The notes under the pieces: model-generated
Databases searched by the model: none
Told to the model about the DNA's origin: nothing
What the model saw: only the letters and a program-made list of their open reading frames with translations
In this document: piece after piece, positions 3,004 to 64,000 of the stretch
Numbering within the stretch: position 1 is the stretch's first letter
How the letters are laid out: the number at the start of each line of letters is the position of its first letter
Assembly: GCF_034424315.1 (NCBI RefSeq)
Contig: NZ_CP139972.1
Span: forward strand, 2,294,001-2,358,000
From: Chitinophaga sancti
Lineage (GTDB): Bacteria > Bacteroidota > Bacteroidia > Chitinophagales > Chitinophagaceae
Direction of reading: 5' to 3'
Length of the DNA stretch: 64,000 nucleotides
Position numbers and translations under genes: made by a program

Positions 3004-3016
3004 AAAAGACTACACC

Positions 3017-20820: not shown

Positions 20821-20829
20821 CGGCTAAGC

Positions 20830-21981: not shown

Positions 21982-21986
21982 TTTAA

Positions 21987-22874: not shown

Positions 22875-22880
22875 GAATTA

Positions 22881-23993: not shown

Positions 23994-23998
23994 ACCTA

Positions 23999-24496: not shown

Positions 24497-24498
24497 AA

Positions 24499-26860: not shown

Positions 26861-26884
26861 TGCGATGCGTTTAAAAGTTCAACA

Positions 26885-30994: not shown

Positions 30995-31174
30995 AGTTGG
31001 AGGATTAAGTATCCGAAACGCTGGCCGCACGCTTACGGATTTTTTGGTTGATTATTGGTTTAGACTAACTCCTGGACTTATTTTTTCGATGTTTGGTTTT
31101 AGTTGCCTGGTTGTTTAAAATTCAGTGCTGTTTTGCTGAGATGAATGTTGGCTTTAATTAACTTCTTTCTGACA

Positions 31175-32356: not shown

Positions 32357-32421
32357 TCAACAGATTACGATATAATAACACCAAACAGGTGTGGTTCGTC
32401 TAAAGGGTCTGAAAAAATATT

Positions 32422-33534: not shown

Positions 33535-34518
33535 ATGGATGCGCTAATAACCCACATTACTGAAAATAAATACGCGAATCTTTATAGTCTTCTCATTTAT
33601 CACAGCAATACAATTATCTATGAAAATTATTTTTCGGGTCACTCTGCTGACTCATTGTTTGATATCAGGTCCTCTTTTAAATCAATCCTGTCATTATTGG
33701 TAGGCATTTCTCTGGATCAAGGGCATATCCATAGTCTTGATGACAAAGTCTCATTGTATTTTGACGATACCAGGTATGCGCCCTTTTTTACCGGGAGGAA
33801 AAGGGATATTACCGTACGGCACCTGCTGACTATGAAATCGGGCCTCATTTGCGAGGAGTTTTTTTCTTCCCATGATTGTGAAACACCTATGGAGAAAAGT
33901 GATAACTGGATTACTTTCTGCATGGAAAGGCCTTTGGCAAACAAGCCCGGTCATCAATGGTCATATGGCACCTGCAATACGCTTATTGCCGGTGCACTAA
34001 TCGAAGTTGCTGCGGGAATATCACTTGGAACATTCGCAGCCAGGTATCTTTTTACTCCTCTCGGGATCAATGACTACAAATGGACCAGGGATCCTTCCGG
34101 CAACTACATGTCCGGCGGTTCCTTCTTTATGCGGGCGCCGGATATGCTTAAAATAGGGCAACTGATGTTAGGCAATGGTAGCTTCTCGCATCAGCGTATC
34201 ATTTCGGGCGAATACCTGGCCCTTGCAACATCTCCTATCAATAAAATACCTTCTTTTTCTTTTGTTGGTCAAAGCGGGCTTAAGGATATTTCCTGCAAGC
34301 CAGCTTATTATGGCTTCTATTGGTATACCGAATCTGTTAAAGTGGGTAAACGTTTTTATACATGTCAGTTTACTTCAGGCAATGGAGGGCAGTATTTGCT
34401 GCTGATCAGGGAACTGGCTTTGGTTGTTGTTTGTACACAAGGGAATTTTGATTCCCCACGTGCCAAACAGTTTTTTGAATTGCTGATTCAACAGATTATC
34501 CCGGCAGTACTTCAATAG
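33535..34518 (+). CDS. Beta-lactamase-fold serine hydrolase without signal peptide (class C/PBP-like)
   Basis: 327 residues. The family's catalytic Ser-x-x-Lys is Ser46-Ser-Phe-Lys49 (RSSFKS). Other markers are HLLTMKSGL, the WSYGTCNT block where Tyr144 replaces the Tyr of the usual YxN motif, MRAPDMLKIGQLMLGNG, and SGNGGQ in place of the third motif. There is no signal peptide or membrane helix, so it should act in the cytoplasm, unlike most penicillin-binding proteins. It converges on the aminomutase gene with a 3-bp gap. In an NRPS cluster it could be a PBP-type peptide esterase or cyclase, a peptide-trimming enzyme or a resistance hydrolase. The cluster already has a C-terminal TE, so no role is certain. 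Confidence 0.8.
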   Translation: MDALITHITENKYANLYSLLIYHSNTIIYENYFSGHSADSLFDIRSSFKSILSLLVGISLDQGHIHSLDDKVSLYFDDTRYAPFFTGRKRDITVRHLLTMKSGLICEEFFSSHDCETPMEKSDNWITFCMERPLANKPGHQWSYGTCNTLIAGALIEVAAGISLGTFAARYLFTPLGINDYKWTRDPSGNYMSGGSFFMRAPDMLKIGQLMLGNGSFSHQRIISGEYLALATSPINKIPSFSFVGQSGLKDISCKPAYYGFYWYTESVKVGKRFYTCQFTSGNGGQYLLLIRELALVVVCTQGNFDSPRAKQFFELLIQQIIPAVLQ

Positions 34519-34521
34519 ATA

Positions 34522-35814
34522 TTATACTGTAACCTCAAGATTCCTGGCATGTTCAAAGTAACGCTCTTCATATTTATCAATGGTGGCGAGATCCGAAAAC
34601 CATTTAGGATTATTGATAATCTCCCGGCCCTTAAATACTTTGTAGGCAAGTCCCGGGTCGCGGTGCTGGAGGTAACGTAAGTAAAACACATCATCCACAC
34701 AATCAAGTAATTCGATCTTACCATGCAGCGCCGACATCACCGGTCCTTTTGCGGTACGGCAAATACCACTTAGTTTTTGAATTGCATTCTTATAAATATG
34801 CAGGGCAGTTCTCAGATCCTCTGCAAAATGATGTTGCGCTCCTGTATCTCTCGGCAAAAACATGTAATAAGGGATCAACCCCAATTGTACCTGCCGCTCC
34901 CACATTTCCGCCCATATCTCACTTTTATTGTTGATAGTTCTGAGTAAAGGGGCCTGTGTCCTGATCTCAGCACCTGTAGATCGCAGATTTTTAATTGCTT
35001 CTACCACAATATCAGGTTTCAATTCTGCGGGATGATTAAAATGGGACATAATAGCAAGATGTTTCCCGCTTTCCGTTACCTTGCGAAGTATTTGAAGTAC
35101 ATCCTTATACCCTTCTTCCGCCGTAAACTTAAATGGCCAGAAAGTGAGAGATTTAGTACCTATCCTGATATTACGCAAACTTTTCACCTGCAACAGTGCG
35201 TCGATATACCTGGAAAGTATTTGAGGACCCATTACCATAGGATCTCCCCCTGTCAGCAACACATCCGTAATCTGCGGATTGTAATTAAGATACCTGATCA
35301 GCGAATCGATTTCCTTTGATTGAAACTTTAATTCTGCATTGGATATAAACTGTGGCCAACGGAAACAAAAAGTGCAATATGCGTGACATGTCTGACTATG
35401 ACTGGGGAAGTACAACACCGTATTTCTATATTTATGTTGAAGGCCTTCCAGTCGTATTCCATTTTCATATGGTACATTAAAAGATGTTTGACCTGCCGGA
35501 TGAGGATTGAGTGTATCCCGGACCTGATCTACTAATTCTGCAAATTCAGCTTTTGAGAGATGGACTCTTCCCCACTTCAATTTATCGTAGTGCTCTTCTG
35601 TGAGCATCCCCCGGTGAGGAAAGTTTAACCTGAATATCGGATCATCAATCCCTCTTTCCCAGTCGATGAGATTATCCAGCACATAGTTATTTGTCTTGAA
35701 CGGATATATTTCACCAACAATTTTGACATCCTCAATAATTTCCTTATCCATCTTTTGCAGATGGGGAATAGATTCCAGGGCACTAATATTGTATGATTTA
35801 TATTTGGGTACCAT
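34522..35814 (-). CDS. KamA-family radical SAM aminomutase (lysine 2,3-aminomutase-like)
   Basis: ATG 35814 gives 430 residues; the longer open frame to 35940 overlaps the oxygenase gene. The Fe4S4 ligand motif CxxxCxxC is Cys143, Cys147 and Cys150 (CHAYCTFC), followed by FRWPQF. TGGDPMVM is the SAM-binding loop, and the late AKGPVMSALHGKIE block is where KamA relatives bind PLP. KamA enzymes shift an amino group from C2 to C3, for instance lysine to beta-lysine. Here it is the last gene of the NRPS operon (26 bp after the oxygenase). Module 1's A domain has a Lys-like code, so beta-lysine supply is plausible. Substrate is not proven. Confidence 0.85.
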   Translation of the reverse strand: MVPKYKSYNISALESIPHLQKMDKEIIEDVKIVGEIYPFKTNNYVLDNLIDWERGIDDPIFRLNFPHRGMLTEEHYDKLKWGRVHLSKAEFAELVDQVRDTLNPHPAGQTSFNVPYENGIRLEGLQHKYRNTVLYFPSHSQTCHAYCTFCFRWPQFISNAELKFQSKEIDSLIRYLNYNPQITDVLLTGGDPMVMGPQILSRYIDALLQVKSLRNIRIGTKSLTFWPFKFTAEEGYKDVLQILRKVTESGKHLAIMSHFNHPAELKPDIVVEAIKNLRSTGAEIRTQAPLLRTINNKSEIWAEMWERQVQLGLIPYYMFLPRDTGAQHHFAEDLRTALHIYKNAIQKLSGICRTAKGPVMSALHGKIELLDCVDDVFYLRYLQHRDPGLAYKVFKGREIINNPKWFSDLATIDKYEERYFEHARNLEVTV

Positions 35815-35840
35815 AACAATTGAATTAAAATGATCTTCAG

Positions 35841-36800
35841 TTACGCCATTGAGGCAAGTATCTTCCTGTTTCCGCGATAGGGCAGCCTTCCGTGTAAAGA
35901 GGCCATATTGTCTACAATTAACAGATCGCCCTTTTCCCAACTTACCGGAATCGTTACTTCATCCAGTACCTGAATAATTTCCTGAATATATTCCAGCGGA
36001 ATTTCTGTTCCGTCGCCAAATGTGGCATACATAGGCAAGTTCTCTTTAATACCATTGTTCATAGCCAATAATGCTTCATAAACTTCTGCCCCGTATATCT
36101 GCGGATAGAACTGATCTACCTGATTGAACCACAATTCTTCATTTGTCTGAGGATGGAGTCTTATTGCGGGTCTTGTCTGGATAAACCTTCCTGTTCCGTC
36201 CTTACGCCATTCAACGGTAATATTATGTTTGGCACAATATTCATTGACAAAATTTTTGTCTTCTGATTCAAATGCTTCCTGCCAGGAAGGACCTAATCCC
36301 TGACCTTTATGAAGGTTTCTTATATAGGTAATCCCTTTTGTTCTGAAATCATTTACCAGCGAAACATTCAGCTTTTCAAGTACCTGTTTACAATCCCCCA
36401 CGGTTGTTTCTCCACCTTCATCTGGCCGCACCACACAACAGAAGCAGATAACCGCTGGCCATTCTCCGCTGTAGGAGAATTCTGTATGCAGTTGTATGAT
36501 AGACCCTGCATCGTATTCCGAGGCATTATATACGGTAGAGGTATATTTACCTCTGCTGGAGTTGCCATCCAGAAAACTCTTGGTTGATGGATATAACTCC
36601 TGCATCAGGTATTGAAACTTATCCGCAGAATCGATATTCAAACCCTTTATCCATAGCGCGCCCGAGTCTAGCACACGCTGGTATACCGGGCTTTCTTCTG
36701 TGCGTGCCCAGGCAATAAAATCATCAACAGTTGTTTGTTCATCAAACCGCAGCACCATAGGAAGTGCCTGTTCATTAATTGTTTTTTCTTGCAGATGCAT
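35841..36800 (-). CDS. SyrP/TauD-type Fe(II)/2-oxoglutarate oxygenase (likely amino-acid beta-hydroxylase)
   Basis: 319 residues. Iron ligands are His105 and Glu107 (LHTEFSYS; Glu in place of the more common Asp) and His303 (SLHGRLPYRGNR), with Arg312 available for 2-oxoglutarate. The SSRGKYTSTVYNASEY stretch is typical of the SyrP-like family, which hydroxylates Asp, Asn or other residues while bound to a carrier protein. It starts 20 bp after the TE-containing NRPS gene, so it is in the operon. Module 7 has an Asn code, so beta-hydroxy-Asn is a reasonable guess, but Lys or the four X residues are alternatives. Confidence 0.88.
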   Translation of the reverse strand: MHLQEKTINEQALPMVLRFDEQTTVDDFIAWARTEESPVYQRVLDSGALWIKGLNIDSADKFQYLMQELYPSTKSFLDGNSSRGKYTSTVYNASEYDAGSIIQLHTEFSYSGEWPAVICFCCVVRPDEGGETTVGDCKQVLEKLNVSLVNDFRTKGITYIRNLHKGQGLGPSWQEAFESEDKNFVNEYCAKHNITVEWRKDGTGRFIQTRPAIRLHPQTNEELWFNQVDQFYPQIYGAEVYEALLAMNNGIKENLPMYATFGDGTEIPLEYIQEIIQVLDEVTIPVSWEKGDLLIVDNMASLHGRLPYRGNRKILASMA

Positions 36801-36820
36801 ATGTTAAGTGTTTTAAGTGT

Positions 36821-39800
36821 TTACAAGCCCGCTTTTATAACCTCTTTAATATTATCATGCTGCTGTAGCGCTTCATAAATTTTATCGATATTCTCATCCA
36901 GTTCTAGGCTTTCGTAGTGGTCGCCGGATAAATAGTAATGTGTAAACGCATTAACGGTAAACTCATTCCAGTCTTCCATACTAAGGAAGTCCTTACTCAT
37001 ATTCTCCTTCGACTTAAATGCGATCAGCTTTCCTTTTATACTTCCTTTTTGCTGATATTTTTCTGTCAGCTTGATATTATTATTCCAGTTGATGGTGATA
37101 TCATTCAGATAGGATATGGCAGGATCGATCATTTTGATCTTGTCAAGAAACTGATTGATATCTTCGTGTTCTGCGGAAGCCGTTTTAAGTCCAAGGAAAG
37201 ATCTACGTTTGATTACCGGGCGGTCTATAACAAGCAACGTAGTTTCAAAACCTTCCTGTTCCAGCATTTTTGCGACCTCAAACGCCACTGTTGCACCGTA
37301 GGAGAATCCCATCAACCGTACTTTTTTCTCCGTTGCATGTTCAATAATCTGATTGGCAAAAAGTCTTACTTTTTCGTTTAATGTAAGATCTATTTTCTCC
37401 GCCTGGTCAAAGCCTGCATCCTGCAGTCCATAACAGTTATAGCAGCCACTCAGGGTATTAGCTATTTTTTTGTACACTAATGGCGAGCCTATGAGTGGTG
37501 GCAGCAAATACAATGCGGGTCTCCCGGCCTGGTGCTGGTCTATTGCTACTATCAATGCCGGCTCATGATGCCTGTTGGTTGCAGATAGAATAGCGGCCTG
37601 CGCCCCAATGGTTGGATTTTGCATAAACGAGCCCAATGTGAGCCTGCAATGGAATGCTTTAAATATTCTTGATATTACCTGGATAGCCCGCAGGGAATGT
37701 CCACCAATCTCGAAAAAGTTATCATCCACTCCAATTTGTTGTTTACCCAGTACATCTTCCCATATGCGGGCCAGTGTCTGTTCTGTAGCTGTTTCCGGTG
37801 CACGGTAAATCTGTCGCAGTGCTTCCGGCGCCGGCAGTGATTTACGGTCTATCTTACCGTTACCCGTAAGTGGCAGCTGCTCCAGTTCCATGAAATAGGC
37901 AGGAATCATATATTGTGGCAACCGGGTTTGCAGCCAGGATCGTACAGATGCTGCCGATACTGCCTTATCGACCGTATAATAGGCTACCAGTGACTTTTCT
38001 GTTCCTTTATTGTATACAGTTACTATTGCCTGACGAAGTAAACCTGATGAAAGCAGGCTTTCTTCAATCTCTCCAAGCTCTATGCGATAACCGCTGATCT
38101 TTACCTGATTATCTTTACGGCCATAGAATACTACTTCTCCATCAGCAGTCCAGCTCGCGATATCTCCTGTCCGGTATAATTTACCCCGGCCATAAGGATC
38201 GACGATGAAACGGTCCTGCGTCAGTAAGTCATTGTTCAGGTATCCTGCCGCAACTCCGTCTCCGGCTATACATAACTCTCCCGGCACTCCTACCGGTTGT
38301 AATTGCTGATGACCATCCAGTATATAGAGTTGGGTATTGGCCAACGGGCGGCCGATAAGAGGAGATTGTTCCGTACTCGTTACCTCCAGTGCTGTAGAAA
38401 ATATCGTGGTTTCTGTTGGACCATACATGTTCCATACACGGCCTGTAAGATGCAGCAGCTGCCGGATCAGGCCTTCTGTCATCGCTTCACCTCCGGAGAT
38501 GACCTGCAGGCCTGCACGGCCCTTCCAGCCACTCTGCAACAACAGATTCCACATCCCGGGGGTTGCCTGCAGTATTGTGGCCTCACTACTGTTAAGTAAA
38601 GCACTCAGCTGGTCTGGCATGTTGCAGACATCATTACCTGCTAATATCAATCGGCAACCCATGGTCAGCGGGAGCAACAGCTCTACAACTGACATATCAA
38701 AAGTATAGGTCGTAATTGCCACCAAACGGTCGGCCATACTCACACCCAGTTTCTCTTTAATATAGCACAGTACATTTACGACTCCTTTATGTGGCACCAG
38801 TACTCCTTTCGGACGCCCGGTAGAACCGGAGGTATAGATGACATAAGCAATATCTTCCGGATGAATTTTAACGGCAACACCAGCTGCATTATAACCATTA
38901 AGGGTACTTTCTTCACTGAGGTTCAGTACAGCAACTCTTCCCTCATCGGAAAGGGTGGTATTATCTGTAAGGATAAGCCGCAGCTGACTGTCTGCTATAA
39001 TATATTCCAGCCTGTCTGCCGGATGCGTCGGGTCCAGTGGCACATAACCTGCTCCTGATTTCAGGATCCCCAGTATACCGATGACCAGGTATTCATTACG
39101 TGTGGTGCTGATACCTATCAATTCATTGCCTGTGATGCCATGAACACCCACCAGCCTGTCTGCAAGCTGATTAGACAAGCTATCCAGTTCCCGGAAAGAA
39201 AACGTTTTCCCCTCGCTGACAAGTGCTGTTTCATCAGGATGAAGGGATGCCTGTTGTACAAAACAGCTCACAAGATCCTGCCTGTTTAAATCCCAGGCTT
39301 TACTGGTTTCATTGAATACCTTCAGCAGCTGGACCTGCTCTGCTTCAGGAATATAATTAAGATGACCTATCGCCTTTTCCGGTGCCTGAAGGATTTCTTC
39401 CAGCAAACATTGCATATGAGTGGCCATACGCTCTATCCGTGCACGGCTATATATATCTGTGTCATATTCTATCCGGAAATTCATTCTGCCGTCTACCAAT
39501 ACAAAGAAAAAAGTAAGATCAAACTTACTTACCTCTTGCTGTACTGGTAGGTTTTCCCCGGTAAGTCCTTTCATATCAGCGCCCTCTTCTCCTTCTTCAC
39601 TTTTCTGCCATACCACCATTACATCAAACAAAGGCGAGCGGCTCATGTCACGCCTTACTCCCAGCTCTTCTATCAATAAATCAAAAGGATAAGCCTGATG
39701 GGAAAAAGCATCAATGGTTGTTGATCTGACCTGGTCCAGAACATGAATAAAACTATCTCTTTCTTCCAGCTGATAGCGCAGAGCCAGCGTATTGAGATAA

Positions 39801-42800
39801 TAGCCAATCTGATCTTCCAGATCGGGGTGATCACGACCAGTCACCGGTGTACCTATTATGATATCCTGCTGGCCGCTGTAACGATATAAAAGAATAGCAA
39901 CCAACGAGAGTATCCCCATAAATGGTGTAACCTGCTTGTCCTGAATTATTTGGCGGAACATCCGGCTTTGTTCTGGTGTGAAATTACTTCGCAACAGTGC
40001 TCCGCGGTGCTTCTGAACAGCGGGGCGGGGATAATCAGCGGGCAACTCCAACACGGGCAATTCTCCTTCAAAAAGAGACAACCAATATTGACGATCCTGC
40101 GAGAATGATTTTTTGGCTAATTCCTGCTGTTGCCATCCGGCATAATCTTTATACTGAACCGGTAATTCAGCAAGTGTTGGCACACTCCCTGCTACATAGG
40201 AATTATAGCAGCTAATCACTTCTTTTACCAAAACCTGTACCGACCACTCATCAGAAATAATATGATGCATGCAACATACCAGCAAATGACTGTCCGGGGA
40301 TTCTCTCAGCAATTCCACCCGGAAAAGCGGCCCCTGTTCAAGATCAAAAACCTTTTCGCAAATGTCTGCGGCATGTGCAATAGCATAATCAACTGGAGAA
40401 GTAAAGGAGCTAAAGTCATGAAATACCAGGTCTATCCCGCATTCTTCTGCTTCCAGTATCCGTTGTCTGGGCGCTCCTTTTTCCAGGATAAATGTGGTGC
40501 GTAAACTTTCGTGACGGGCAACCAAATAGCGGAATGCTGCACGTAATGCGGCAAGATCTACATCTCCATTCAGCCTGTAATGCATGGAAATATTATAGGC
40601 CACCGACTGATCTTCCAGCTGGTTGATGACCCATAAGCGCCGTTGTGCATGCGAAAGTTCATAATCCGGCTGCTTAGCAATCCGCGGAATAGATCCTGCA
40701 AAAGTTTGCCGGGATGCCTCTACTAAAGCTACCAGCTGAGATAGCACGGAGCAGGTGAAAATATCACGTAGATTCAACTTAACAGACAGCTCACGGGCGA
40801 TACGATGATTCACCTGTATAGCAGTCAGCGAATGACCTCCTATCTCAAAAAAATCATCATCAAGACTAATACGTTCCTTACCTAACACTTCCTCCCAAAT
40901 GCGGGCAATTGACTTTTCTGTGGCAGTACCGGCTGCACGATAGGCCTTTGATCGGGAAAGCGGGGCCGGCAGAGACATACGGTCAATCTTCCCGTTAGTG
41001 GTCAACGAAAACTGTTCCAGCTGCATAAAATGAGTTGGTATCATATACTGCGGCAAACGCCCCTGCAGATGAATACGCAGCGTATCAACAGCTACAGGCT
41101 TATCTGCTGTATAGTAAGCCACAACAGACTTCGCAGTACCTGCATCATAAACCGCAGCGACTACCTGACTAAGCAAACCTGAAGAAATCAGGCTTTCTTC
41201 AATCTCTCCCAGCTCTATACGATATCCCCGGATCTTAACCTGATTATCCCTGCGTCCGTAAAAGATAATTTCCCCGGTGCTTGTCCACCCAGCGATGTCG
41301 CCGGTACGGTATAATCTTCCTTCGCCATAAGGATTTGAAATAAAACGTTCATCCGTCAGCACATCATTGTGCAGATATCCTTTAGCAAGTCCTTCACCAG
41401 CGATACATAACTCACCTGGCACTCCTGGCGGTAGCAACTGTTGATGTTCATCCAGGATATAAATCTTCATATTAGCAATAGGGGTACCAATCACACGTAC
41501 ATCAGCACTAACATTAACAGGGGCCACCACACAACCTACTGTTGCCTCCGTTGGCCCATATTCGTTAAAGATGCGGACATCGGAACTTGTCATCCCGGAG
41601 AGGCGTGCAATATGGGAGCTTGTCAATTCCTCTCCACCAACAATGATAACTTCCAGATCACGAAGATCAGCACCTATACTATGTAATAATTCGATATGAG
41701 CAGGAGTGATCTTCAGCGCATTAATACCGGGTTCGCGGAACATGAGATCCAATGCGTCCAGCAAGTTTGTTTGAGGATATAGCCGCACTGCATCACCCCT
41801 GTAAAGGCCGCCCAGTAAACTTGTCACAGTTAAATCAAATGAAATCGAGGTAAAAACGGGGAAGACATAGGTTTTTCCAGGTTTAAAATAATAGTTATTC
41901 GCCCAGCTGATATAGTTGATTACTGCATGATGCTGCAATATTACTCCCTTAGGACGGCCTGTTGAACCAGAAGTATAGATCACATATGCTATATCTGCAG
42001 GTTCTGGCAAAACAGGCATATCAACAGGGTCGTAACCACTCAAAACATCTTCGCCACTCAAATCCAAGACTTCTGTATTATTAAAGAGCTGCGTTGCATC
42101 ATCTGTCAGTACCAGGTCAAGCTTACTATCTTCAATAATATAATTCAGCCGGTCTGCGGGATATACAGGATCTAGCGGAACGTATGCTCCGCCTGCTTTC
42201 AAAATACCCAGTATACCAATCATGAGGAATTCATTACGAGCAGTGCTGATACCTATGAGTTGATTTCTTTTAACACCATGTGCCTTGCGAAGTCTATCTG
42301 CCAGCTGATTTGAAAGGGCATTCAGCTCACGGAATGAAAGTATTTTCCCGTCACGGATAAGTGCGGTTTTATTTGGATTTAGTGACACCTGTTTTGCGAA
42401 GCAGCTCACCAAATCCGGTGGGTTTAATTGCCAGTCAAAATTAGTATTATTAAAGGTATGCAGCACCAGATGCTGTTCTGTGGCGGGAATATATTGCAGG
42501 ACCTTAACCGCAGCCATTGGCGTCTGTAATACGGTATGTAAAAGTTCTTTCAGATGAGCTGCCATTTGTTCAATACGCTCTTTCCTGAATAATGCAGTAT
42601 CATATTCTATCTGAAAATCAATTATACCTTTATTAATTTCGAAGAAAAATGTAAGATCAAACTTGCTCACAACATCATGGAGATGTACATTTTCAATTTC
42701 AAGATCATCCAGATCAGGCAGTGTTTCTGCCTGCTGCCCGTTCTGCCAGACCACCATGACATCAAACAATGGTGATCTACCCGGGTCTCTTCCCAAACCT

Positions 42801-45667: not shown

Positions 45668-45703
45668 GGTGTTGCCATTTAATCCTGTGATTGGATTATT
45701 TCA

Positions 45704-51700: not shown

Positions 51701-54700
51701 ACTGTTAAATTCACTATACGACAGATCCACATTGGAAGTACTGAAAACAGGATGCTCCATCTGATCCTGATGATACACAGTCAATGGCAATACTGCAGCT
51801 GCAGGGTTATCAATCACCATCAGTGTAGCTACTTTAACCCCATGTCTGGTTAAAAACTGTTGTAACCCTGCCACATGTGCAGCAGTGGTGATGATCGCTT
51901 TCATACCGGTATCTTCCATCACCTGTAATAGCTGCTGCGCTGCCTGGTCTGCCGACATCGGCACATATACGGCTCCCGCCTTAAAGCACGCTAACAGGGC
52001 AAGCACCTGCAATGGACCGCCGCCGGCATAAACACCAACCGTACTTTCATGTCCGCAGTCAAAAGACAATAGTCCATGGGAAAGCTGGTTAGCGTAACTA
52101 TTTAACTCTTCGTAGCGCACACGAAGGCCATAACCGGATAATGCTATCCTGTCAGGATACTGCCTCACGCGTTCCTCTATCACACGATGCAACAGCGGCT
52201 GCGCCACACCTGGAAGGGGGGCCGTAAACCAGCTCTCATCTTCCTGCTCTCCTGCTGCCTGGTAAGCAATATTATCTATTGCCATATCAGGATCTGCAAG
52301 CACAGCGTCCATCAGCTTACAGAGGTGAGTGGCCATACGTTCTATACGCTCACGGTTGAAAATTGCACTGTTATATTCAATGTTGCCATAAAGAACATCA
52401 CTGTGTTCATTATGATAAAACTGGAAGCGAAGGTCTCCTTTGCTGATGTCCAGGGAAGCTGTTTCTGCAACAACTTCCAGTCCATGCATCTCTAGCTGTT
52501 TTTCATCATTGAGCCGTACATTCTGTAATATCACCACCACATCCGACAATGGTGACCGGCTCAGATCTCCACCAAGGCCCAGCTCTTCCACCAACATGTC
52601 AAACGGGTAAACCTGGTGATCAAAACCTGACAAGGTCGTATCCCGCACAGAAGACAACAACTGTTTAAAACCTGTATTGCCATTTACTTCATTTCTCAGC
52701 GCCAGCGTGTTCAGGTAATAACCTATCTGGTCTTCAAGGTCAGGATGGTGACGGCCAGCAACAGGGCTGCTAATGATCAGGTCTGACTGCCCGCTGTAGC
52801 GGTACAGCAAGACATTTACCAATGACAGCACACCCATAAACAGGGTAGCATCCTGGCCATGCAGCAGCTCCTGATAGCTTTTGCCCGAGGCTGTGTCAAA
52901 CCGGAAGCTCACATGTCCTCCATGGTGCGCCTGCACCTGTGGACGGCTGTGATCTGCAGGCAGCTCCAGCAAGGGCAGCTCTCCGGACAAACGAGACAAC
53001 CAGTAATCACGGTGGGTAGCCAGCTGATCACCGCTTAGCGCAATTTGCTGCCATACCGCGTAGTCTTTATATTGCAGGGGCAGTACACTCATCGATAGTG
53101 AATGGCCAGCCGTATGATGATTATAGACTCTTACCAGCTCCCGAACCATCACCTGCATAGACCATTCATCGGAGATGATATGATGCATTGACCAGGCCAG
53201 CAGCCATTCTGTGGCAGAAAGCCGCAGCAATGCCACCCGCAGCAATGGACCACTCTTCAAATCAAAGCCGGCGTTGATAAAATCACGGATATAGTCCTGT
53301 GCAGACTCCTCAGGTGAAGGTAATCCACTAAAATCCCGGGTACTCCAGTAACCGTCAGCGGCTGCAGCTAATATGCGCTGACGCGGCACACCATCCCGCA
53401 GCACAAAAACAGTACGAAGGATCTCATGACGATCCGACAGCTGGCGGAAGGAAGCCTCCAGCGCAGCAATGTCCAATGCGCCATGCAGACGATACACCAC
53501 AGGAATATTATAAGTAGCGCCATGGCCATGTAACTGATCCTGCACCCACAGCCGCTGCTGGGAATGCGACAATGGGTAATCGGCCATGACATCAGCTAAT
53601 GGAATGGGCTGATAACTGGTGTGAACACTGGCTTTAATCAGTGACGCCAGCTGGTGTAATACAGGATGGGAGAACAGCTCTGCTATCGTAAGCTGTACGT
53701 CCAGCTCCTTATAGATACGGGCAATCAGCTGAATAGCTTTCAGCGAAGAGCCTCCTATGGTAAAGAAATTATCTCCACGTCCTACACGGGATAACCCCAG
53801 CACCTGCTGCCACAAGGCGGATAGCTGTTGTTCCAGACCCGCCTGCGGTGCATCGTAAGTACTTTGCAATAACATTTCTTCAGGACGTGGCAAGGCATTG
53901 CGGTCTACCTTACCATTCATGTTTAAAGGAAAAGTATCCATCCAAACATAATAGCCAGGCAACAGCGCAGCGTTTAGTTTTGCAGACAGCAAGGTGCGCA
54001 GCTCTTCAGCCTCATAGCGGTGCCCACTATAATAACACAGCAGCTCCTGACGAAAATCTTCCCCCGTATGTACTACCAGCTCTGTGCGGGACACACCCTC
54101 CTGTTCCAGCAACGCCGCCCGTACCTGCTCCAGCTCTACACGCACACCGTTGATCTTCACCTGCTCATCGCGGCGGCCAAGAATTTCAAGGCTCCCATCA
54201 CGGCGGTAACGGCCCAGATCTCCCGTACGCCATAACTGGTCGCCGGCAGCCCCATTCAAGGGGTTGGCTACCAGATACCCACTGTTAAGATCTGCAGAAA
54301 CATAACCTTTGGTGATATAAGGACTCCTGATATATACCTCTCCCATCTCTCCGGCAACACAAAGATGATGGCTGTTATTGATCACGCCCACCAGTGTATC
54401 GGCTACCGGAAATCCTACCGGCAACACTTCTCCCGCCTGCCAGTCCCAGTGATCAATATGAAAACAGGTTTTTAGTATCGTCGTTTCTGTTAATCCGTAC
54501 AAATTAGACAGACGTGCTGCTGTACCATTGGCGGCTTTCCAGTTTAGTACATCCCTGCCGTATAAACGCTCTCCTGCCAGCACCACATAACGCAACGCTG
54601 TAAACGGCTGACCGGACTCCTGCAGACTGCCGGTAATCAAACGGAAAACAGAAGGTACCGTCTGCAGCAGTGTGATCTCTTCACTTCGTAACCATTCCAC

Positions 54701-57034: not shown

Positions 57035-60000
57035 AGAAATATTTCTTCTGCGTCACCTGATAAATCAGTAGTAACCGGGTTATTAATCCATAACAACATC
57101 TCGATCTTATCAGAAAACTGATAGAGCAGTGGGTTTATAAATATATCTTCCAGTTTAAGTTTTAGGGAGAGCTCTTTTAAAATCCGGGAGTTAACCTGTA
57201 TTACCTTCAGAGAATTTCCACCTAATTCAAAAAAATTATCATCCAAACCTACACGCCCATTTCCCAGTACATCTTCCCATATGCGGGCCAGTGTCTGTTC
57301 TGTAGCTGTTTCCGGTGCACGGTAAATCTGTCGCAGTGCTTCCGGCGCCGGCAGTGATTTACGGTCTATCTTACCGTTACCCGTAAGTGGCAGCTGCTCC
57401 AGTTCCATGAAATAGGCAGGAATCATATATTGTGGCAACCGGGTTTGCAGCCAGGATCGTACAGATGCTGCCGATACTGCCTTATCGACCGTATAATAGG
57501 CTACCAGTGACTTTTCTGTTCCTTTATTGTATACAGTTACTATTGCCTGACGAAGTAAACCTGATGAAAGCAGGCTTTCTTCAATCTCTCCAAGCTCTAT
57601 GCGATAACCGCTGATCTTTACCTGATTATCTTTACGACCATAGAATACTACTTCTCCATCAACAGTCCAGCTCGCGATATCTCCTGTCCGGTATAATTTA
57701 CCCCGGCCATAAGGATGAGCGATGAAACGGTCCTGCGTCAGTAAGTCATTGTTCAGGTATCCTGCCGCGACTCCGTCTCCGGCTATACATAACTCTCCCG
57801 GCACTCCTACCGGTTGTAATTGCTGATGACCATCCAGTATATAGAGTTGGGTATTGGCCAACGGGCGGCCGATAAGATGAGATTGTTCCGTACTCGTTAC
57901 CTCCAGTGCTGTAGAAAATATCGTGGTTTCTGTTGGACCATACATGTTCCATACACGGCCTGTAAGATGCAGCAGCTGCCGGATCAGGCCTTCTGTCATC
58001 GCTTCACCTCCGGAGATGACCTGCAGGCCCGCACGGCCCTTCCAGCCACTCTGCAACAACAGATTCCACATCCCGGGGGTTGCCTGCAGTATTGTGGCCT
58101 CACTACTGTTAAGTAAAGCACTCAGCTGGTCTGGCATGTTGCAAACATCATTACCTGCTAATATCAACCGGCAACCCATGGTCAGCGGGAGCAACAGCTC
58201 TACAACTGACATATCAAAAGTATAGGTCGTAATTGCCACCAAACGGTCGGCCATACTCACACCCAGTTTCTCTTTAATATAGCACAGTACATTTACGACT
58301 CCTTTATGCGGCACCAGTACTCCTTTCGGACGCCCGGTAGAACCGGAGGTATAGATGACATAAGCAATATCTTCCGGATGAATTTTAACGGCAACACCAG
58401 CTGCATTATAACCATTAAGCGTACTTTCTTCACTGAGGTTCAGTACAGCAACTCTTCCCTCATAGGAACTGGTGGTATTATCTGTAAGGATAAGCCGCAG
58501 CTGACTGTCTGCTATAATATATTCCAGCCTGTCTGCCGGATGCGTCGGGTCCAGTGGCACATAACCTGCTCCTGATTTCAGGATCCCCAGTATACCGATG
58601 ACCAGGTATTCATTACGTGCGGTGCTGATACCTATCAATTCATTGTTTGTGATGCCATGAACACCCACCAACCTGTCTGCAAGCTGATTAGACAAACTAT
58701 CCAGTTCCCGGAAAGAAAATGTTTTCCCCCCGCTGACAAGTGCTGTTTCATCAGGATGAAGGGATGCCTGTTGTACAAAACAGCTCACAAGATCCTGCCT
58801 GTTTAAATCCCAGGCTTTACTGGTTTCATTGAATACCTTCAGCAGCTGGACCTGCTCTGCTTCAGGAATATAATTAAGATGACCTATCGCCTTTTCCGGT
58901 GCCTGAAGGATTTCTTCCAGCAAACATTGCATATGAGTGGCCATACGCTCTATCCGTGCACGGCTATATATATCTGTATTATACTCGATATTCAGATTAA
59001 GTTCATTTCCCTGTTTCTCGAAATAAAAAGTAAGATCAAACTTGCTGACAACATCACCCAGTTGAATTCGTTCGGCCTCAATTCCATTAAAGGCAATATC
59101 CCCTGTACTATCCTGTCCGCCGCTATGCCATACCACCATTATTTCAAATACAGGAGACCGGCTCAGGTCGCGTTTCAAGCCCAATTCATCTACCAGCAGA
59201 TCAAAAGGATACGCCTGATGGGTGAATCCTTTCATAGTTGTTTGCCTTGTTTGGCTGAGTACATTTACAAAACTATCTTCCGCAACAATTCTATTTCTGA
59301 ACGCCAGTGTATTAACATAAAAGCCAATTTGTTCTTCCAGATCCGGATGTTCCCGACCGGCTACAGGTGTACCAATAATTACATCTGATTGCCCACTGTA
59401 TCGGTACAGTAAAACATTAACGAGAGATATCACACCCATGAACAGGGTTGCCTGTTGTTCTTTCAGCAGTTGCTGGAACCTTGAACTCTGGCTTAAAGAA
59501 AATGAATGTCTGGAATAGGCCCCCTGATGTTTGAGCACCGCAGACCTTTTATAGTCAGTTGGCAGATCCAATACAGGTAGTTCTCCTTCGAAATGAGATA
59601 ACCAATAACTTCTATGTTCCTTAAACTGTTCACCTGTTAATTCCTGTTGCTGCCAGGCAGCATAATCTTTATACTGTATGGTCAGTTCCGGCAACAAAAT
59701 CTTTCTTCCTTCTACTATTGCATTATATGTCTGATTTATTTCCCGAACCATTACCTGCATAGACCATTCATCAGAAATAATATGATGTATAGCGCAAAGA
59801 AGTACAGATAGTGAATCGGTTATCCTGAAAACTACAACCCTGAATAGCGGGCCGTTTTCCAGGTCAAATTGCTTCATACTTATATCCCTGGCACTTTCCA
59901 TCGCTAAACTTTCCGCATCCGGTGATGTGCGGAAATCATGGATCTCCAGGCTGGTATTGACATCCTGCTCTGACTGAATCCGCTGCCTGGGTTCTCCATC

Positions 60001-60399
60001 TCTTAATACAAACACAGTTCGCAGACTTTCATGACGTTCCACCAGATGACGGAATGCAACAGACAAAGCATTAACATCCAATAGTCCCTTCATCTTATAA
60101 AGAGTGGATATATTATATGCTACCGACTGTCCATTGAACTGACTCAATACCCATAATCGTTTCTGCGAATTGGATAATGCATAGCTTTCCATCAGTGGTA
60201 CTTTAGGAATAGGCTGGTAGGCCTCTTTCTTTACCTCGCTGAGGTAGCTTATGATTTCCGCTTTATTGTTCCTGATCTCATCCAGATGAGCTGATGTCAA
60301 TGTTCCCGATGGTGCATTAATCTTCACCTGGCCATCAACAAGCTGGATTTGCACACCTAGCTTACGAAGTTCATTCAGTAAAATTTGTAACTGCTTCAT
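57031..60399 (-). CDS. Nonribosomal peptide synthetase, single module C-A-PCP
   Basis: 1122 residues: TubC-type docking domain (1-55, RKLGVQIQLVDGQVKI), C domain (HHIISDEW at 205), A2 (about 510-1000) and PCP (Ser1063 in LGGNSLK), with a hydrophobic-acidic tail (NNPVTTDLSGDAEEIFL). The A2 code reads DMVQIGMIF, matching no code I know with certainty; it shares Asp, Gln, Gly, Met and Ile with the Gly-type code. The A2 region is nearly identical at DNA level to A8 in the last subunit. The start overlaps the previous stop by 4 bp. The docking domain should receive the acylated dipeptide intermediate from the first subunit. Confidence 0.94.
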   Translation of the reverse strand: MKQLQILLNELRKLGVQIQLVDGQVKINAPSGTLTSAHLDEIRNNKAEIISYLSEVKKEAYQPIPKVPLMESYALSNSQKRLWVLSQFNGQSVAYNISTLYKMKGLLDVNALSVAFRHLVERHESLRTVFVLRDGEPRQRIQSEQDVNTSLEIHDFRTSPDAESLAMESARDISMKQFDLENGPLFRVVVFRITDSLSVLLCAIHHIISDEWSMQVMVREINQTYNAIVEGRKILLPELTIQYKDYAAWQQQELTGEQFKEHRSYWLSHFEGELPVLDLPTDYKRSAVLKHQGAYSRHSFSLSQSSRFQQLLKEQQATLFMGVISLVNVLLYRYSGQSDVIIGTPVAGREHPDLEEQIGFYVNTLAFRNRIVAEDSFVNVLSQTRQTTMKGFTHQAYPFDLLVDELGLKRDLSRSPVFEIMVVWHSGGQDSTGDIAFNGIEAERIQLGDVVSKFDLTFYFEKQGNELNLNIEYNTDIYSRARIERMATHMQCLLEEILQAPEKAIGHLNYIPEAEQVQLLKVFNETSKAWDLNRQDLVSCFVQQASLHPDETALVSGGKTFSFRELDSLSNQLADRLVGVHGITNNELIGISTARNEYLVIGILGILKSGAGYVPLDPTHPADRLEYIIADSQLRLILTDNTTSSYEGRVAVLNLSEESTLNGYNAAGVAVKIHPEDIAYVIYTSGSTGRPKGVLVPHKGVVNVLCYIKEKLGVSMADRLVAITTYTFDMSVVELLLPLTMGCRLILAGNDVCNMPDQLSALLNSSEATILQATPGMWNLLLQSGWKGRAGLQVISGGEAMTEGLIRQLLHLTGRVWNMYGPTETTIFSTALEVTSTEQSHLIGRPLANTQLYILDGHQQLQPVGVPGELCIAGDGVAAGYLNNDLLTQDRFIAHPYGRGKLYRTGDIASWTVDGEVVFYGRKDNQVKISGYRIELGEIEESLLSSGLLRQAIVTVYNKGTEKSLVAYYTVDKAVSAASVRSWLQTRLPQYMIPAYFMELEQLPLTGNGKIDRKSLPAPEALRQIYRAPETATEQTLARIWEDVLGNGRVGLDDNFFELGGNSLKVIQVNSRILKELSLKLKLEDIFINPLLYQFSDKIEMLLWINNPVTTDLSGDAEEIFL
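57265..58977 (-). repeat. 1713-bp segment duplicated in module 8 of the final NRPS
   Basis: Bases 57265-58977 match 37748-39460 almost base for base with a constant offset of 19517, so without insertions or deletions. The segment runs from the end of the C domain (YSRARIERMATHMQC) through all of the A domain to the linker before the PCP. The sequences diverge abruptly at both ends. Confidence 0.92.
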
Positions 60400-63300
60400 A
60401 TAATGATTTCATCGATGTTATTTGATAAATCAGATTTTGTTGGTGTATTAATCCACATCAGTAATGCAACACGTTCTGTAAACTGTGCGAATACAGGGTT
60501 AATAAACAAATCTCTCAATTCCAGCTTAACGGAAAATTCCTTAAATACTCTGGAAATTACCTGTATTGCCTTTAAAGACTGGCCTCCGATCTCAAAAAAA
60601 TCATCATTCATACTAACATTGGGGCGCTGAAGCACATTTTCCCAGAGGCGGGCCAAATCACGTTCTAATGGTGTTTCAGGGGCATGGTAGCTGTGAGGGC
60701 TGGATACAGGTGCGGGTAGTAACTTTCTGTTTATCTTGCCATTTGGTGTTAATGGTAACTGTGTCAACAACACGAAAAAAGATGGCACCATATAATAGGG
60801 CAACCGGGTATGTAAGTACTCCCTTAATGCAACCAGGTTCTCATTTTTAGCAGTATAGTATGCCACCAGCGTTTTTCCTGCATCATTTAGCAAAACATCT
60901 ACCACTACCTGATCTACCAATCCCGAACCTAATAGACACTTTTCGATTTCACCCAGTTCTATACGGTATCCGCGAATCTTTACCTGCGTATCCCGTCTGC
61001 CAGAAAAAATAACATTGCCATCCGACTCCCAGCACCCAATATCACCGGTACGGTATAATCTTCCTTCTCCAAATGGGTTTACTACAAACCGCTCATGGGT
61101 CAATTCCGGTTTATTAAGGTATCCAAGTGCGACCCCGGCACCGGCTATGCATATTTCACCCGGAACCCCAACCGGCTGTGGCTGAAGCGTATGATCAAGT
61201 ATATATACCTGCGTATTGGCAATTGGCTTGCCTATAATATGTGTTCTCCTTATATCTGTAACCGGAAAATAGGTAGCACATACGGTTGTTTCTGTTGGTC
61301 CGTATGTATTATACAGGGCAACTTTACCGAGTAAGCGATCCACATAGGAAGGCAATAATTCATCTCCTCCGCTGATAATAACCCGGAGCGTACCAGGGAA
61401 TTGCAGACGGGTATTTAGTTCATTCAGGATGAGCGGTGTTACACTTAAAACAGTGACGTGTTCTCTCTCAATCATATCACATAGTGATTCAATGTCACGG
61501 CCTCCTTGTTCCGACAGCACCAATACTCCCCCTTTGAACAATACAGGAAACAATTCTTCTACCATCGTATCAAAAGCGATAGATGATTGCAGCACTACCC
61601 TGTCATCTTTACTAATATTGAAATATGTACAAAAAGCATGTATATAGTTAGTCAGCGAACCGCGCGATACCATGACACCTTTCGGCTGTCCGGTAGACCC
61701 CGAAGTATAGAGGATATAAGCCGGTGTATCAGGAGGTACTTTATGGCTGTATGTTGAAGAGGTTATTTCATTTGCGGTAATGATGTCAGGAATGGAACAT
61801 ACCCTTACCTTTCCACCATAAGCATGTACCGTTCCATCCGTAAGCAGCAGCCTAAGATCACTGCTCTCAAACACATAGCGAATCCTGTCTTCAGGATATT
61901 CCGGATCAACAGGAACATAGGCAGCCCCCGCCTTGAGTATACCCAAAATACCTATAACCAGCCATTCATTTCTACCAGTGCTGATTCCAACCAGTCTGTT
62001 ATTACTTTCTCCCAGCCAGTCTGCCACCATTGCGGCCACCTTATCGGCACGCTGATTAAGCTCATCATAAGAAATCACCTTATCTCCGCAAACAAGAGCC
62101 GGAGCTTCCGGTCTGCGCATCACCTGGTTTTCGAAAAATTCAGTCAGCTCCATATCCGTTCCCCAGTCAACAAGGGTATTATTAAATTCATATAGTACCC
62201 GTTCACGTTCTTCCTTCAATAGCAAGGCTACCTGGTCAACGGAAATCAGAGGACGCTCACATACCTGCTGTACGATATTCCCTAAATGATGGCATATCCC
62301 GGAAACATATGCTTCATCATATAGTGTGGTATTGTATTTTATCTTTAAAGAAAGGATATCCTCATTTATACTGAATTCAAAAAGAAGGTCATTCAGACAA
62401 GTATCATTTTCAATTTCTGCAGTACTTGTTTCAAGATCAGCGAAGACTGTATCAAATCCGAGCCCCTGTTCAAAATTCTGGAATATTACCAGCACATTGT
62501 AAGTAGAAAAATCGGTTACTTTCTGCAGACCGGTATTCACCTCTTCAATATGGCAGGTTTGATGGTCATAAATTAATAACAGGTCCTGATGTATTTTCTT
62601 CAGAAAGTTCACATAATGCTCTCCGTTTTCCAGCTTAACATTAACCGGCAGAACATGAAGAAAATACCCGATCTGATCTTCCAGCTGCGGATGGGTACGA
62701 CCGGCAGTATCTATTCCGATCATCATATCGTCTGTACCTGCATAGTTATACTTATTGATCAGTAACGATATAGCAGAAATAATTACACTAAAGAATGATA
62801 CACCATGGGTATAGGCAAGTGTGTTAATTGCAGCAGTTGTTCCGGCAGCATAGTGCTTTTTAAAAACGGCTCCCTGCGCCATTTCCTTTTCCGGTACCGT
62901 ATGCTTATTTGTCGTTACCGGGATACGAAAACCTGCAGATACATCTCGAAGATATTTTTCCCAGAACAACCTGTTCTGCTGATATTTTTCTGTCAGCAGC
63001 AACTGTTGCTGCCAGAAGACAAAATCCTTATATTGAATTTTTTCAGACACTGGTTCCGGGGCCATTCCATTTTTAAGCAATTGGTATAATGCTGCCAATT
63101 CTTTTCCGATAAGCTGAATGGACCATCCATCGCTGATAATATGATGAATGGATAAAACAAAGACCCATGTGTCCGCAGAGACTTTTGCAAGATAGGAACG
63201 GCATAAAGGCGCCTGCTCAATATTAAACGGCATACGGGCTATCCGCTGCTTTTGCTTTTGCAACAATGCGTCCGGATTTATTTCTGCAGTCAGGTCTTCC

Positions 63301-64000
63301 GTCTCCCATACCGGCTGCACCTCTTCTGCAGGAAATAAAACCTGCATAGGTTCATTATCCTTCCATTGAATGGCTGTTCTGAGCACATCATTATTACGGA
63401 TCAATAACTGAAATGCCTGTTGCAGGATTTCCTCTTCCAGATGCCCTTTCATATCTACGGCAAAGCAAATATTCATGTTAGCTGATTCAGGTGCCATCAT
63501 ATGAGCTACATAAATCTGCTTTTGGCCCCAGCTGAGCGGATATACCGTTTCGTAAGGAGATTTTTTTATGTTCCGGCCAATATAATCATGTTCTCTTTTT
63601 TGTTGTTTTAGTAGTGTTTCCAGATTATTAATGGAACCAGCTTCGTATAACATTGAAAAAGAGATATCAAATTTATGCCGGCTAAGTGCGTTGATCAATG
63701 AGAGTGCTTTCAGACTACTTAAAGCTGCGTTAAACAAGCTCTCATCCGGCTGCACATCACTGCCTACACCAACCTGTTTCAGCACCTTGGCAAGTAAACC
63801 GGAAATATCTTCACCACCGGGATCTCCAGACAGGTCATTTTCAAGTTGTTGCATCAATGCTATTTCACCGTTGAAAGTTCCCCGGATCAGATCTTCCTTC
63901 AACCTGAAGTGCATTACCTTTCCACTCGTAGTTTTAGGAATACTGCGTATAGGCAATATATAGTCCGGATAGATATCCATTCTGGCCGCCAGCAGTTCTC
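60396..64000 (-). CDS. Nonribosomal peptide synthetase loading subunit: FAAL(end)-ACP-C-A-PCP (5' end outside window)
   Basis: The frame is open to base 64000, so the N-terminus lies outside. The first visible residues (YILPIRSIPKTTSGKVMHFR) are the A10-like end of a fatty acyl-AMP ligase, followed by a carrier domain with NAALSSLKAL, a C domain with the canonical HHIISDGWS (about residue 279 counted from the Met at 63980), A1, and a PCP (Ser1135 on that count). This is the architecture for lipoinitiation: an activated fatty acid is passed to the ACP and condensed with the first amino acid. The A1 code DTESIGTVC is close to the Lys code DAESIGSVC known from bacitracin synthetase. A basic first residue is therefore likely. 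Confidence 0.92.
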   Translation of the reverse strand, partial: ELLAARMDIYPDYILPIRSIPKTTSGKVMHFRLKEDLIRGTFNGEIALMQQLENDLSGDPGGEDISGLLAKVLKQVGVGSDVQPDESLFNAALSSLKALSLINALSRHKFDISFSMLYEAGSINNLETLLKQQKREHDYIGRNIKKSPYETVYPLSWGQKQIYVAHMMAPESANMNICFAVDMKGHLEEEILQQAFQLLIRNNDVLRTAIQWKDNEPMQVLFPAEEVQPVWETEDLTAEINPDALLQKQKQRIARMPFNIEQAPLCRSYLAKVSADTWVFVLSIHHIISDGWSIQLIGKELAALYQLLKNGMAPEPVSEKIQYKDFVFWQQQLLLTEKYQQNRLFWEKYLRDVSAGFRIPVTTNKHTVPEKEMAQGAVFKKHYAAGTTAAINTLAYTHGVSFFSVIISAISLLINKYNYAGTDDMMIGIDTAGRTHPQLEDQIGYFLHVLPVNVKLENGEHYVNFLKKIHQDLLLIYDHQTCHIEEVNTGLQKVTDFSTYNVLVIFQNFEQGLGFDTVFADLETSTAEIENDTCLNDLLFEFSINEDILSLKIKYNTTLYDEAYVSGICHHLGNIVQQVCERPLISVDQVALLLKEERERVLYEFNNTLVDWGTDMELTEFFENQVMRRPEAPALVCGDKVISYDELNQRADKVAAMVADWLGESNNRLVGISTGRNEWLVIGILGILKAGAAYVPVDPEYPEDRIRYVFESSDLRLLLTDGTVHAYGGKVRVCSIPDIITANEITSSTYSHKVPPDTPAYILYTSGSTGQPKGVMVSRGSLTNYIHAFCTYFNISKDDRVVLQSSIAFDTMVEELFPVLFKGGVLVLSEQGGRDIESLCDMIEREHVTVLSVTPLILNELNTRLQFPGTLRVIISGGDELLPSYVDRLLGKVALYNTYGPTETTVCATYFPVTDIRRTHIIGKPIANTQVYILDHTLQPQPVGVPGEICIAGAGVALGYLNKPELTHERFVVNPFGEGRLYRTGDIGCWESDGNVIFSGRRDTQVKIRGYRIELGEIEKCLLGSGLVDQVVVDVLLNDAGKTLVAYYTAKNENLVALREYLHTRLPYYMVPSFFVLLTQLPLTPNGKINRKLLPAPVSSPHSYHAPETPLERDLARLWENVLQRPNVSMNDDFFEIGGQSLKAIQVISRVFKEFSVKLELRDLFINPVFAQFTERVALLMWINTPTKSDLSNNIDEIII

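What the first reader, a model, noticed from the sequence alone, without database searches (positions are those of the whole stretch)
34522..64000. Lipopeptide NRPS operon with eight modules, tetra-repeated substrate and two tailoring enzymes
Seen in sequence: FAAL end, ACP, 8 C, 8 A, 8 PCP and one TE in co-linear order, then an oxygenase and a radical SAM aminomutase in the same operon. Inference from codes: acyl-Lys-(Gly-like)-X4-Asn-(Gly-like). I do not know a described Chitinophaga lipopeptide with four identical consecutive residues between Lys and Asn.
Basis: partly seen in the sequence, partly recalled or inferred. Interest (0 to 1): 0.85.

Follow-up and report, generated by a model that had tools for sequence, protein, structure and literature searches.

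The report
Lipopeptide assembly line with insert module
A bacterium of the genus Chitinophaga carries a gene set that probably builds an undescribed fatty-acid-tagged peptide with nine, not eight, building stations, one of them on a separate gene that appears to slot into the middle of the line, and it repeats one unusual building block several times.

Summary
In detail: FAAL end, ACP, 8 C, 8 A, 8 PCP, one TE, then a TauD-type oxygenase and a KamA-like radical SAM gene, all on the minus strand. The window cuts the operon. To its right lie the FAAL domain, a cyclic-peptide exporter, an AsnB-like gene, a stand-alone A-PCP-C gene and an outer-membrane receptor-like gene. The stand-alone gene has the pocket code of the repeated residue X, and its ends match where gene N3 stops (after C) and gene N4 starts (with A). 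In 8 of 8 Chitinophaga genomes with this A-domain type the same split was seen, with an insert of one or five modules (G461 partly from contig ends). Best reading: acyl-Lys-Gly-X3-[X]-X-Asn-Gly, nine modules. X is unresolved; K239 in its code and an Arg in the radical SAM pocket where lysine aminomutases have Asp point to an Asp/Asn/Glu-type residue, perhaps hydroxylated and amino-shifted. No described product was found; chitinopeptin does not match. New variant of a known kind; moderate interest.

The parts
34522..35844 (-). radical SAM protein of the KamA (lysine 2,3-aminomutase-like) kind, 440 aa; CxxxCxxC and PLP-Lys kept, the two Lys-binding Asp positions changed (first one Arg)
35841..36800 (-). 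TauD/clavaminate-synthase-like Fe(II)/2-oxoglutarate oxygenase, 319 aa; HTE...H seen in sequence
36821..45667 (-). NRPS gene N4: A6(X)-PCP-C-A7(Asn)-PCP-C-A8(Gly-like)-PCP-TE, starts directly with the X adenylation domain
36866..37516 (-). terminal thioesterase domain (GFSYG)
38237..39259 (-). A8 (Gly-like), code DMVQIGMIFK
41372..42400 (-). A7 (Asn), code DLTKIGEVGK
44522..45637 (-). A6 (X); about 900 nt of its core 93-98% identical in DNA to the N3 domains, lower outside
45704..57034 (-). NRPS gene N3: TubC docking-(C-A(X)-PCP)x3-C; ends after a condensation domain
45758..47095 (-). terminal condensation domain of N3, the open end of the slot
47816..48934 (-). A5 (X), code DAKQVALILK
51059..52177 (-). 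A4 (X), code DAKQVALILK
54302..55420 (-). A3 (X), code DAKQVALILK
57031..60399 (-). NRPS gene N2: TubC docking-C-A2(Gly-like)-PCP
60396..64000 (-). NRPS gene FAAL-ACP-C-A1(Lys)-PCP, runs on to 65540; the FAAL domain itself lies right of the window
62199..63551 (-). first condensation domain, next to the acyl carrier domain
63612..63806 (-). acyl carrier domain after the FAAL

Best explanation
A FAAL-initiated lipopeptide assembly line of nine modules. FAAL loads a fatty acid on the ACP; then Lys, Gly-like, X, X, X are added (FAAL protein, N2, N3; N2 and N3 start with TubC docking domains). N3 stops after a C domain. The separately encoded A-PCP-C protein (genome 2363130-2366414) binds there, adds one more X, and its own C domain hands the chain to N4, which starts with an X adenylation domain and adds X, Asn and a Gly-like residue before the TE releases the peptide. 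Predicted core: acyl-Lys-Gly-X3-[X]-X-Asn-Gly. X is inferred to be an Asp/Asn/Glu-type residue altered by the TauD oxygenase (hydroxylation) and the KamA-like radical SAM enzyme (2,3-amino shift); hydroxylated beta-glutamate or iso-asparagine-like residues are the leading candidates. Export by the cyclic-peptide ABC exporter. Shown: gene and domain order, codes, end-to-end homology, conservation of the split. Inferred: use of the insert in trans, once; identity of X; role of AsnB; product.
For: Domain order and operon. The insert protein is homologous to the last A-PCP-C of N3 (57.8%, residues 1-1092 of 1094 against 2691-3775 of 3776) and to the start of N4 (56.6%, residues 1-1078 against 1-1067), with the same pocket code. 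In 8 of 8 Chitinophaga genomes with DAKQ-type domains there is a gene that starts with X-A and ends with C (one module in 3, five modules in 5) and an N4 that starts with X-A; N3 ending in C was read whole in 7 and as a fragment at a contig start in G461; in G354 and G411 insert and N4 lie on different contigs. Of 60 database proteins with X-type motifs among 240 listed, 19 are complete inserts, 3 insert fragments, 18 N3-type or pieces of it, 12 end in TE, and 8 end otherwise. Tails differ by class: 19 of 19 insert tails end in F, against 3 of 19 in the N3 list. In G461 six A-PCP-C genes in a row show that a C|A gene boundary is a standing format in this genus. Tailoring: 8 of 8 DAKQ genomes carry the radical SAM gene at 59% identity or more, 0 of the other 71; 16 of 16 radical SAM rows have Arg where two lysine-aminomutase-like rows have Asp.
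Against: No docking was modelled or tested; N3 to N4 direct is possible from the same C|A ends. Four database proteins with X domains end in PCP and do not fit the three classes (P0012, P0060, P0121, P0238). Class-specific tails could be plain orthology, and the C. agri insert and N3 C domains group together. The co-occurrence of radical SAM and DAKQ domains follows one inherited cluster type, not 8 independent events. The radical SAM protein is far below the glutamate 2,3-aminomutase cut-off (102.4 against 650 bits), so its substrate is a guess. D235 in the code is the usual mark of alpha-amino acids (stated in PMC12283262, passages), which fits a beta-amino acid less well. DARH-type relatives occur with TauD and AsnB-like genes without the radical SAM gene, so the radical SAM step may act elsewhere.
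Confidence: 0.55

Rival explanations
1. Eight modules: N3 hands over to N4 directly, and the stand-alone A-PCP-C gene is a duplicated, unused or side-reaction module. Product acyl-Lys-Gly-X4-Asn-Gly.
For: N3 and N4 ends are compatible C|A ends and the genes are adjacent.
Against: The insert gene is intact, in the operon, and present in 8 of 8 Chitinophaga genomes with DAKQ domains and in Flavobacterium, Kordia and Sphingobacterium proteins; without it the conserved split has no evident reason and its terminal C domain would be idle.
Confidence: 0.2
2. The insert is used iteratively or optionally, because open C ends and X-A starts are of one kind, so the strain makes a ladder of products with X4, X5, X6 and so on.
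For: In the window genome and the full-length relatives the open junctions are X-PCP-C | X-A; insert ends are compatible with each other by homology.
Against: Tails of N3-list and insert-type proteins differ (3 of 19 against 19 of 19 ending in F), which suggests separate addresses and a fixed order.
Confidence: 0.12
3. X is a plain or only hydroxylated Asp/Asn/Glu, and the radical SAM enzyme acts elsewhere, for example making a free beta-amino acid or altering another residue.
For: The DARH-type sister A domains of G424, G413 and G432 occur with TauD and AsnB-like genes but no radical SAM gene was found there; the code keeps D235; relatives of the radical SAM protein are widespread.
Against: The form with 59% identity or more is found only in the 8 of 79 genomes with DAKQ domains and sits directly after TauD at the end of the operon.
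Confidence: 0.35
4. It is a known cluster, such as a chitinopeptin variant.
For: Same genus, acylated NRPS peptide; iron-binding chitinopeptins contain beta-hydroxy-Asp.
Against: Chitinopeptins have 14-15 residues (a relative has 16 modules), with sbnA/B-like, thioester reductase, metallo-beta-lactamase-fold and S8 peptidase genes; none of these families is among the Pfam matches of the ten genes of 34522-74886.
Confidence: 0.03

Closest known systems
Chitinopeptin gene cluster family (Chitinophaga eiseniae, C. flava; PMC9248904, section 8 read whole, other passages)
   Same: Chitinophaga lipopeptide NRPS with ABC transporter and hydroxylated residues
   Different: 14-15 residue products, other tailoring genes (sbnA/B-like, thioester reductase, metallo-beta-lactamase fold, S8 peptidase); C-starter or, in one relative, PKS start (the figure legend also lists CAL and ACP domains, so a ligase start in a relative is not excluded); no KamA-like gene is named in the section read
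In-trans NRPS modules such as SyrB1, Alb04 and CysH (review PMC8949500, passages; PMC7966384, passages)
   Same: a separately encoded unit supplies a residue to a gap in the main line; cystobactamid couples a 2-oxoglutarate-dependent hydroxylase with an amino shift on Asn
   Different: those are A-T units without a C domain, with a shuttle protein in syringomycin and cystobactamid; here the unit is A-T-C and fits between a C end and an A start; the amino shift there is by an AMDH domain, not radical SAM
IdnL4 of incednine (PMC11284099, passages)
   Same: radical SAM gene inside a natural-product cluster, proposed glutamate 2,3-aminomutase giving beta-glutamate
   Different: polyketide macrolactam starter; activity not seen in vitro; sequence relation to the window protein not tested here
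Lysine 2,3-aminomutase (2A5H)
   Same: sequence match over residues 132-362, CxxxCxxC, PLP-Lys
   Different: both Lys side-chain-binding Asp positions changed, the first to Arg

Membership tests
FAAL-initiated lipopeptide NRPS | FAAL-ACP-C start, C-A-PCP elongation, TE end | tested here: met
   the AMP-binding domain is called FAAL from its place before the ACP and first C, no FAAL-specific model was run
FAAL-initiated lipopeptide NRPS | catalytic motifs present in C, PCP and TE domains | tested here: met
   9 of 9 C, 9 of 9 PCP, TE; ACP motif not canonical
FAAL-initiated lipopeptide NRPS | product is an acylated peptide | not testable with these tools
   no chemistry
Chitinopeptin cluster family | 14 or more modules | tested here: not met
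   9 counting the insert; feature
Chitinopeptin cluster family | sbnA/B-like, thioester reductase, metallo-beta-lactamase-fold and S8 peptidase genes | tested here: not met
   no such Pfam match in the ten genes of 34522-74886
Lysine 2,3-aminomutase | radical SAM CxxxCxxC and PLP lysine | tested here: met
   (PLP-Lys by alignment)
Lysine 2,3-aminomutase | two Asp that bind the Lys side chain (roles recalled) | tested here: not met
   first is Arg in 16 of 16 rows, second not Asp, against two usable lysine-aminomutase-like rows
Glutamate 2,3-aminomutase (TIGR04368) | score above curated cut-off 650 | tested here: not met
   102.4 bits
KamA family (TIGR00238) | score above curated cut-off 199.2 | tested here: not met
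   125.9 bits
TauD/TfdA oxygenase (PF02668) | score above cut-off 27 | tested here: met
   113.7 bits
Cyclic peptide exporter (TIGR01194) | score above cut-off 286.2 | tested here: met
   320.4 bits; gene at genome 2359563-2361224

The most novel reading that the evidence does not exclude
A family of Bacteroidota lipopeptides, seen in Chitinophaga, Sphingobacterium, Flavobacterium and Kordia, whose assembly lines keep a three-part split at a C|A boundary, into which a separately encoded cassette of one or five modules is plugged in trans, and whose repeated residue is a hydroxylated beta-amino dicarboxylic acid made by a radical SAM aminomutase for acidic amino acids; the cassette sets the product's length and could be swapped or iterated.
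Probability: 0.2. Interest if true: 0.75.

Novelty: new variant of a known kind. Interest (0 to 1): 0.52.

Why it matters
If the cassette model is right, nature already uses a conserved cut point (between C and A) to insert one or several modules in trans, with different end signatures; this would be useful for NRPS engineering and warns that reading gene order alone can miscount residues. A radical SAM aminomutase for an acidic amino acid feeding an NRPS would be an uncommon route to repeated beta-amino acids. Neither is proven here.

Tried and rejected
Looked for published codes of X: text searches for DAKQVALILK and a variant found 0 papers. Related codes of the DPRH kind were found in 2 papers: in PMC3547906 (passages) one was predicted as 2-aminoadipate by software, and PMC12283262 (passages) repeats that and lists a similar one as Asn-activating; this leaves X open. 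Recalled pocket codes of microcystin synthetase gave 0 papers, and the two microcystin papers opened (passages) treat other domains, so that comparison stays a recollection.

Neighbour genes of the radical SAM relatives (48 of the 80 loci were entered) gave no function; 6 of the 7 thaumarchaeal loci entered share a neighbour that looks by eye like a mechanosensitive channel, not tested with Pfam. No glutamate 2,3-aminomutase over its cut-off was found in 296 genomes of the phylum (94 genomes with a match, 0 over the cut-off), so the Arg/Asp comparison used two lysine-aminomutase-like rows only; five other rows there were wrong-frame picks and were dropped.

Structure prediction was not used: single-chain models would not show docking or substrate. 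No antiSMASH, PARAS or MIBiG is on hand. Searches for a described product: (18, 1, 2 and 0 papers), in a library of open-licence papers only.

Full report
1. Observation. The window is base 2294001-2358000 of an 8.42 Mb single-contig genome. Domain counts are 8 C, 8 A, 8 PCP, one ACP and one TE, with conserved motifs. The AMP-binding domain taken as FAAL is at 64299-65495 in extended coordinates, so the window holds only the end of that gene.

2. What lies to the right. Reading on, the operon continues: ABC exporter 65563-67224 (TIGR01194 over its cut-off), an asparagine-synthase-type gene 67229-69106 (TIGR01536 over its cut-off), a stand-alone A-PCP-C gene 69130-72414 (1094 aa), and an outer-membrane beta-barrel/TonB-receptor-like gene 72442-74886. 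From 34522 to 74886 no gap between neighbouring genes exceeds 36 nt. A 477-nt gap then separates another receptor-like gene and a second NRPS cluster.

3. Codes. Picked by alignment to the module-7 domain (the last K is added by the script): A1 DTESIGTVCK, A2 and A8 DMVQIGMIFK, A3-A6 and the stand-alone gene DAKQVALILK, A7 DLTKIGEVGK. Assignments Lys, Gly-like and Asn are from general knowledge of such codes; PMC12283262 (passages) treats DLTKIGEVGK in its Asp/Asn section, as also compatible with cyano-alanine. X has no published match found.

4. The repeat. N3 units are 93-100% identical in DNA per 120-nt step, apart from the last step at the end of unit 3, and 98.3% over 7830 nt. The first A domain of N4 shares this only over about 900 nt of its core (93-98%), with 37-72% in the complete steps outside it apart from a border step of 86%; A2 and A8 are 97-100% identical over about 1.6 kb with 49-71% outside, apart from border steps of 85%. 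This looks like recent duplication and local gene conversion. In the nearest relative, G461, both contig ends fall inside N3.

5. The slot. N3 ends after a C domain and N4 begins with an A domain. The stand-alone protein begins like N4 (56.6%) and ends like N3 (57.8%, to within two residues of both C-termini). It fits the break, and N3, insert, N4 is the one order I see that uses each gene once and leaves no C domain idle. In all 8 Chitinophaga genomes with DAKQ-type domains the three parts occur: the insert is one module in the window genome, G423 and G461, and five modules in G330, G354, G394, G407 and G411 (one C domain of the G394 insert was not called). In G461 N3 is broken by contig ends; in G354 and G411 insert and N4 are on different contigs. 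The two database searches list the best 120 proteins each; 60 of these 240 hold an X-type domain by motif: 19 complete inserts, 3 insert-like fragments, 18 N3-type proteins or pieces, 12 ending in TE, and 8 others, of which 4 are pieces ending in an A domain and 4 end in PCP (P0012, P0060, P0121, P0238) and do not fit. Tails: 19 of 19 complete inserts end in Phe; 3 of the 19 entries of the N3 list do, two of which (P0052, P0169) look like incomplete inserts. In a tree of 32 terminal C domains, insert and N3 ends need 3 changes of label; two insert clades (9 rows, 98/96; 7 rows, 100/98) span genera, while the C. agri pair groups together (100/100), against a simple picture.

6. Stand-alone A-PCP-C genes also occur in the sister DARH group: six in a row in G461 contig 4 (PCP called in 4 of 6), then an exporter and an A-PCP gene; three each in G424 and G413 and two in G432, near TauD and AsnB-like genes. 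So the C|A boundary as a gene boundary is a standing format, though its mechanism is untested.

7. Tailoring and X. The radical SAM protein matches lysine 2,3-aminomutase (2A5H, E 9.2e-20) but is below the cut-offs of the Pfam and NCBIfam models it matches. Against two lysine-aminomutase-like rows, the Asp of QCDLS is Arg in 16 of 16 family rows, the second Asp is lost, and the PLP-Lys is kept; that these Asp bind the Lys side chain is recalled. An anionic substrate is inferred. In the genus the gene at 59% identity or more is in 8 of 79 genomes, the same 8 that have DAKQ domains; two others (G412, G446) have it at 43-46%, and G461 has a second copy at 46%. Of the 12 other genomes with hits at E 1e-60 or better (which scored at most 25 candidates a genome), codes were read in 11: 10 DARH-type and one DAHH (G446); G437 gave none. 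So the change from R/H to K/Q in the pocket goes with the close form of the radical SAM gene. In G446 the DAHH-type A-PCP-C gene sits beside a TauD (35%) and the 45-46% radical SAM gene, which links these three genes but not the K/Q code. The TauD protein has an HxE...H pattern as in clavaminate-synthase-like hydroxylases (recalled); its best solved match is At3g21360. Precedents: IdnL4, a radical SAM gene disrupted in incednine biosynthesis and proposed to make beta-glutamate (PMC11284099, passages), and cystobactamid, where hydroxylation and an amino shift act on Asn (PMC7966384, passages). X is therefore most likely an Asp/Asn/Glu-type residue, hydroxylated and perhaps amino-shifted. AsnB may supply Asn or amidate X; this was not tested.

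8. Known or new. No paper found describes this product; the library holds open-licence papers only. Chitinopeptins differ. The parts are all of known kinds. The three-way split with a trans A-T-C insert was not described in the passages read of the review on non-canonical NRPS (PMC8949500), which describes A-T units in trans. Verdict: new variant of a known kind.

Noticed in passing
genome 2371829-2419584 (right of the window; L003-L006, L192): A second large NRPS cluster follows at once, with PPTase, type II TE and MutS/MutE-like glutamate mutase genes (over the Pfam but below the NCBIfam cut-offs) that suggest 3-methylaspartate supply.
   Followed up: partly
G461 contig 4, 199651-222771 (L178, L179): Six consecutive stand-alone A-PCP-C genes (PCP called in 4), an exporter and an A-PCP gene; codes DVRHLALLAK in six and DVRHFALLAK in one: an assembly line with one module per gene.
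   Followed up: partly
window, about 44590-45550 (A6), 37810-39370 (A8), 57330-58890 (A2): Local gene conversion of A-domain cores: A6 core with the N3 domains, and A2 with A8, while the surroundings are far less alike.
   Followed up: yes
L174-L177, L180, L181 (G424, G413, G432): DARH-type A-PCP-C genes sit near TauD and AsnB-like genes; the radical SAM search found no match in these genomes.
   Followed up: partly
L136 (G446), 135860-141521 of contig 1: A radical SAM gene (45%), a TauD gene (35%) and an A-PCP-C gene with a DAHHFALNLK code lie side by side.
   Followed up: no
   Followed up: partly
window 33535-34518: Beta-lactamase-fold gene (PF00144) convergent with the operon; a 327-aa ORF of the same size lies at the same place in G461, not compared in sequence.
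   Followed up: no
window 19627-32982: ECF sigma, FecR, TonB-receptor-like, SusD-like, trypsin-like and three thioredoxin-type genes in one stretch on the minus strand, probably a separate uptake system.
   Followed up: no
P0121: Another assembly (contig 8,491,830 bases) holds a 2226-aa version of N3 whose frame is lost after the second PCP; real or a sequencing error in the repeat.
   Followed up: partly
genome 3050850-3108945 and 1168378-1177868: Two more loci rich in condensation domains in the same genome.
   Followed up: no
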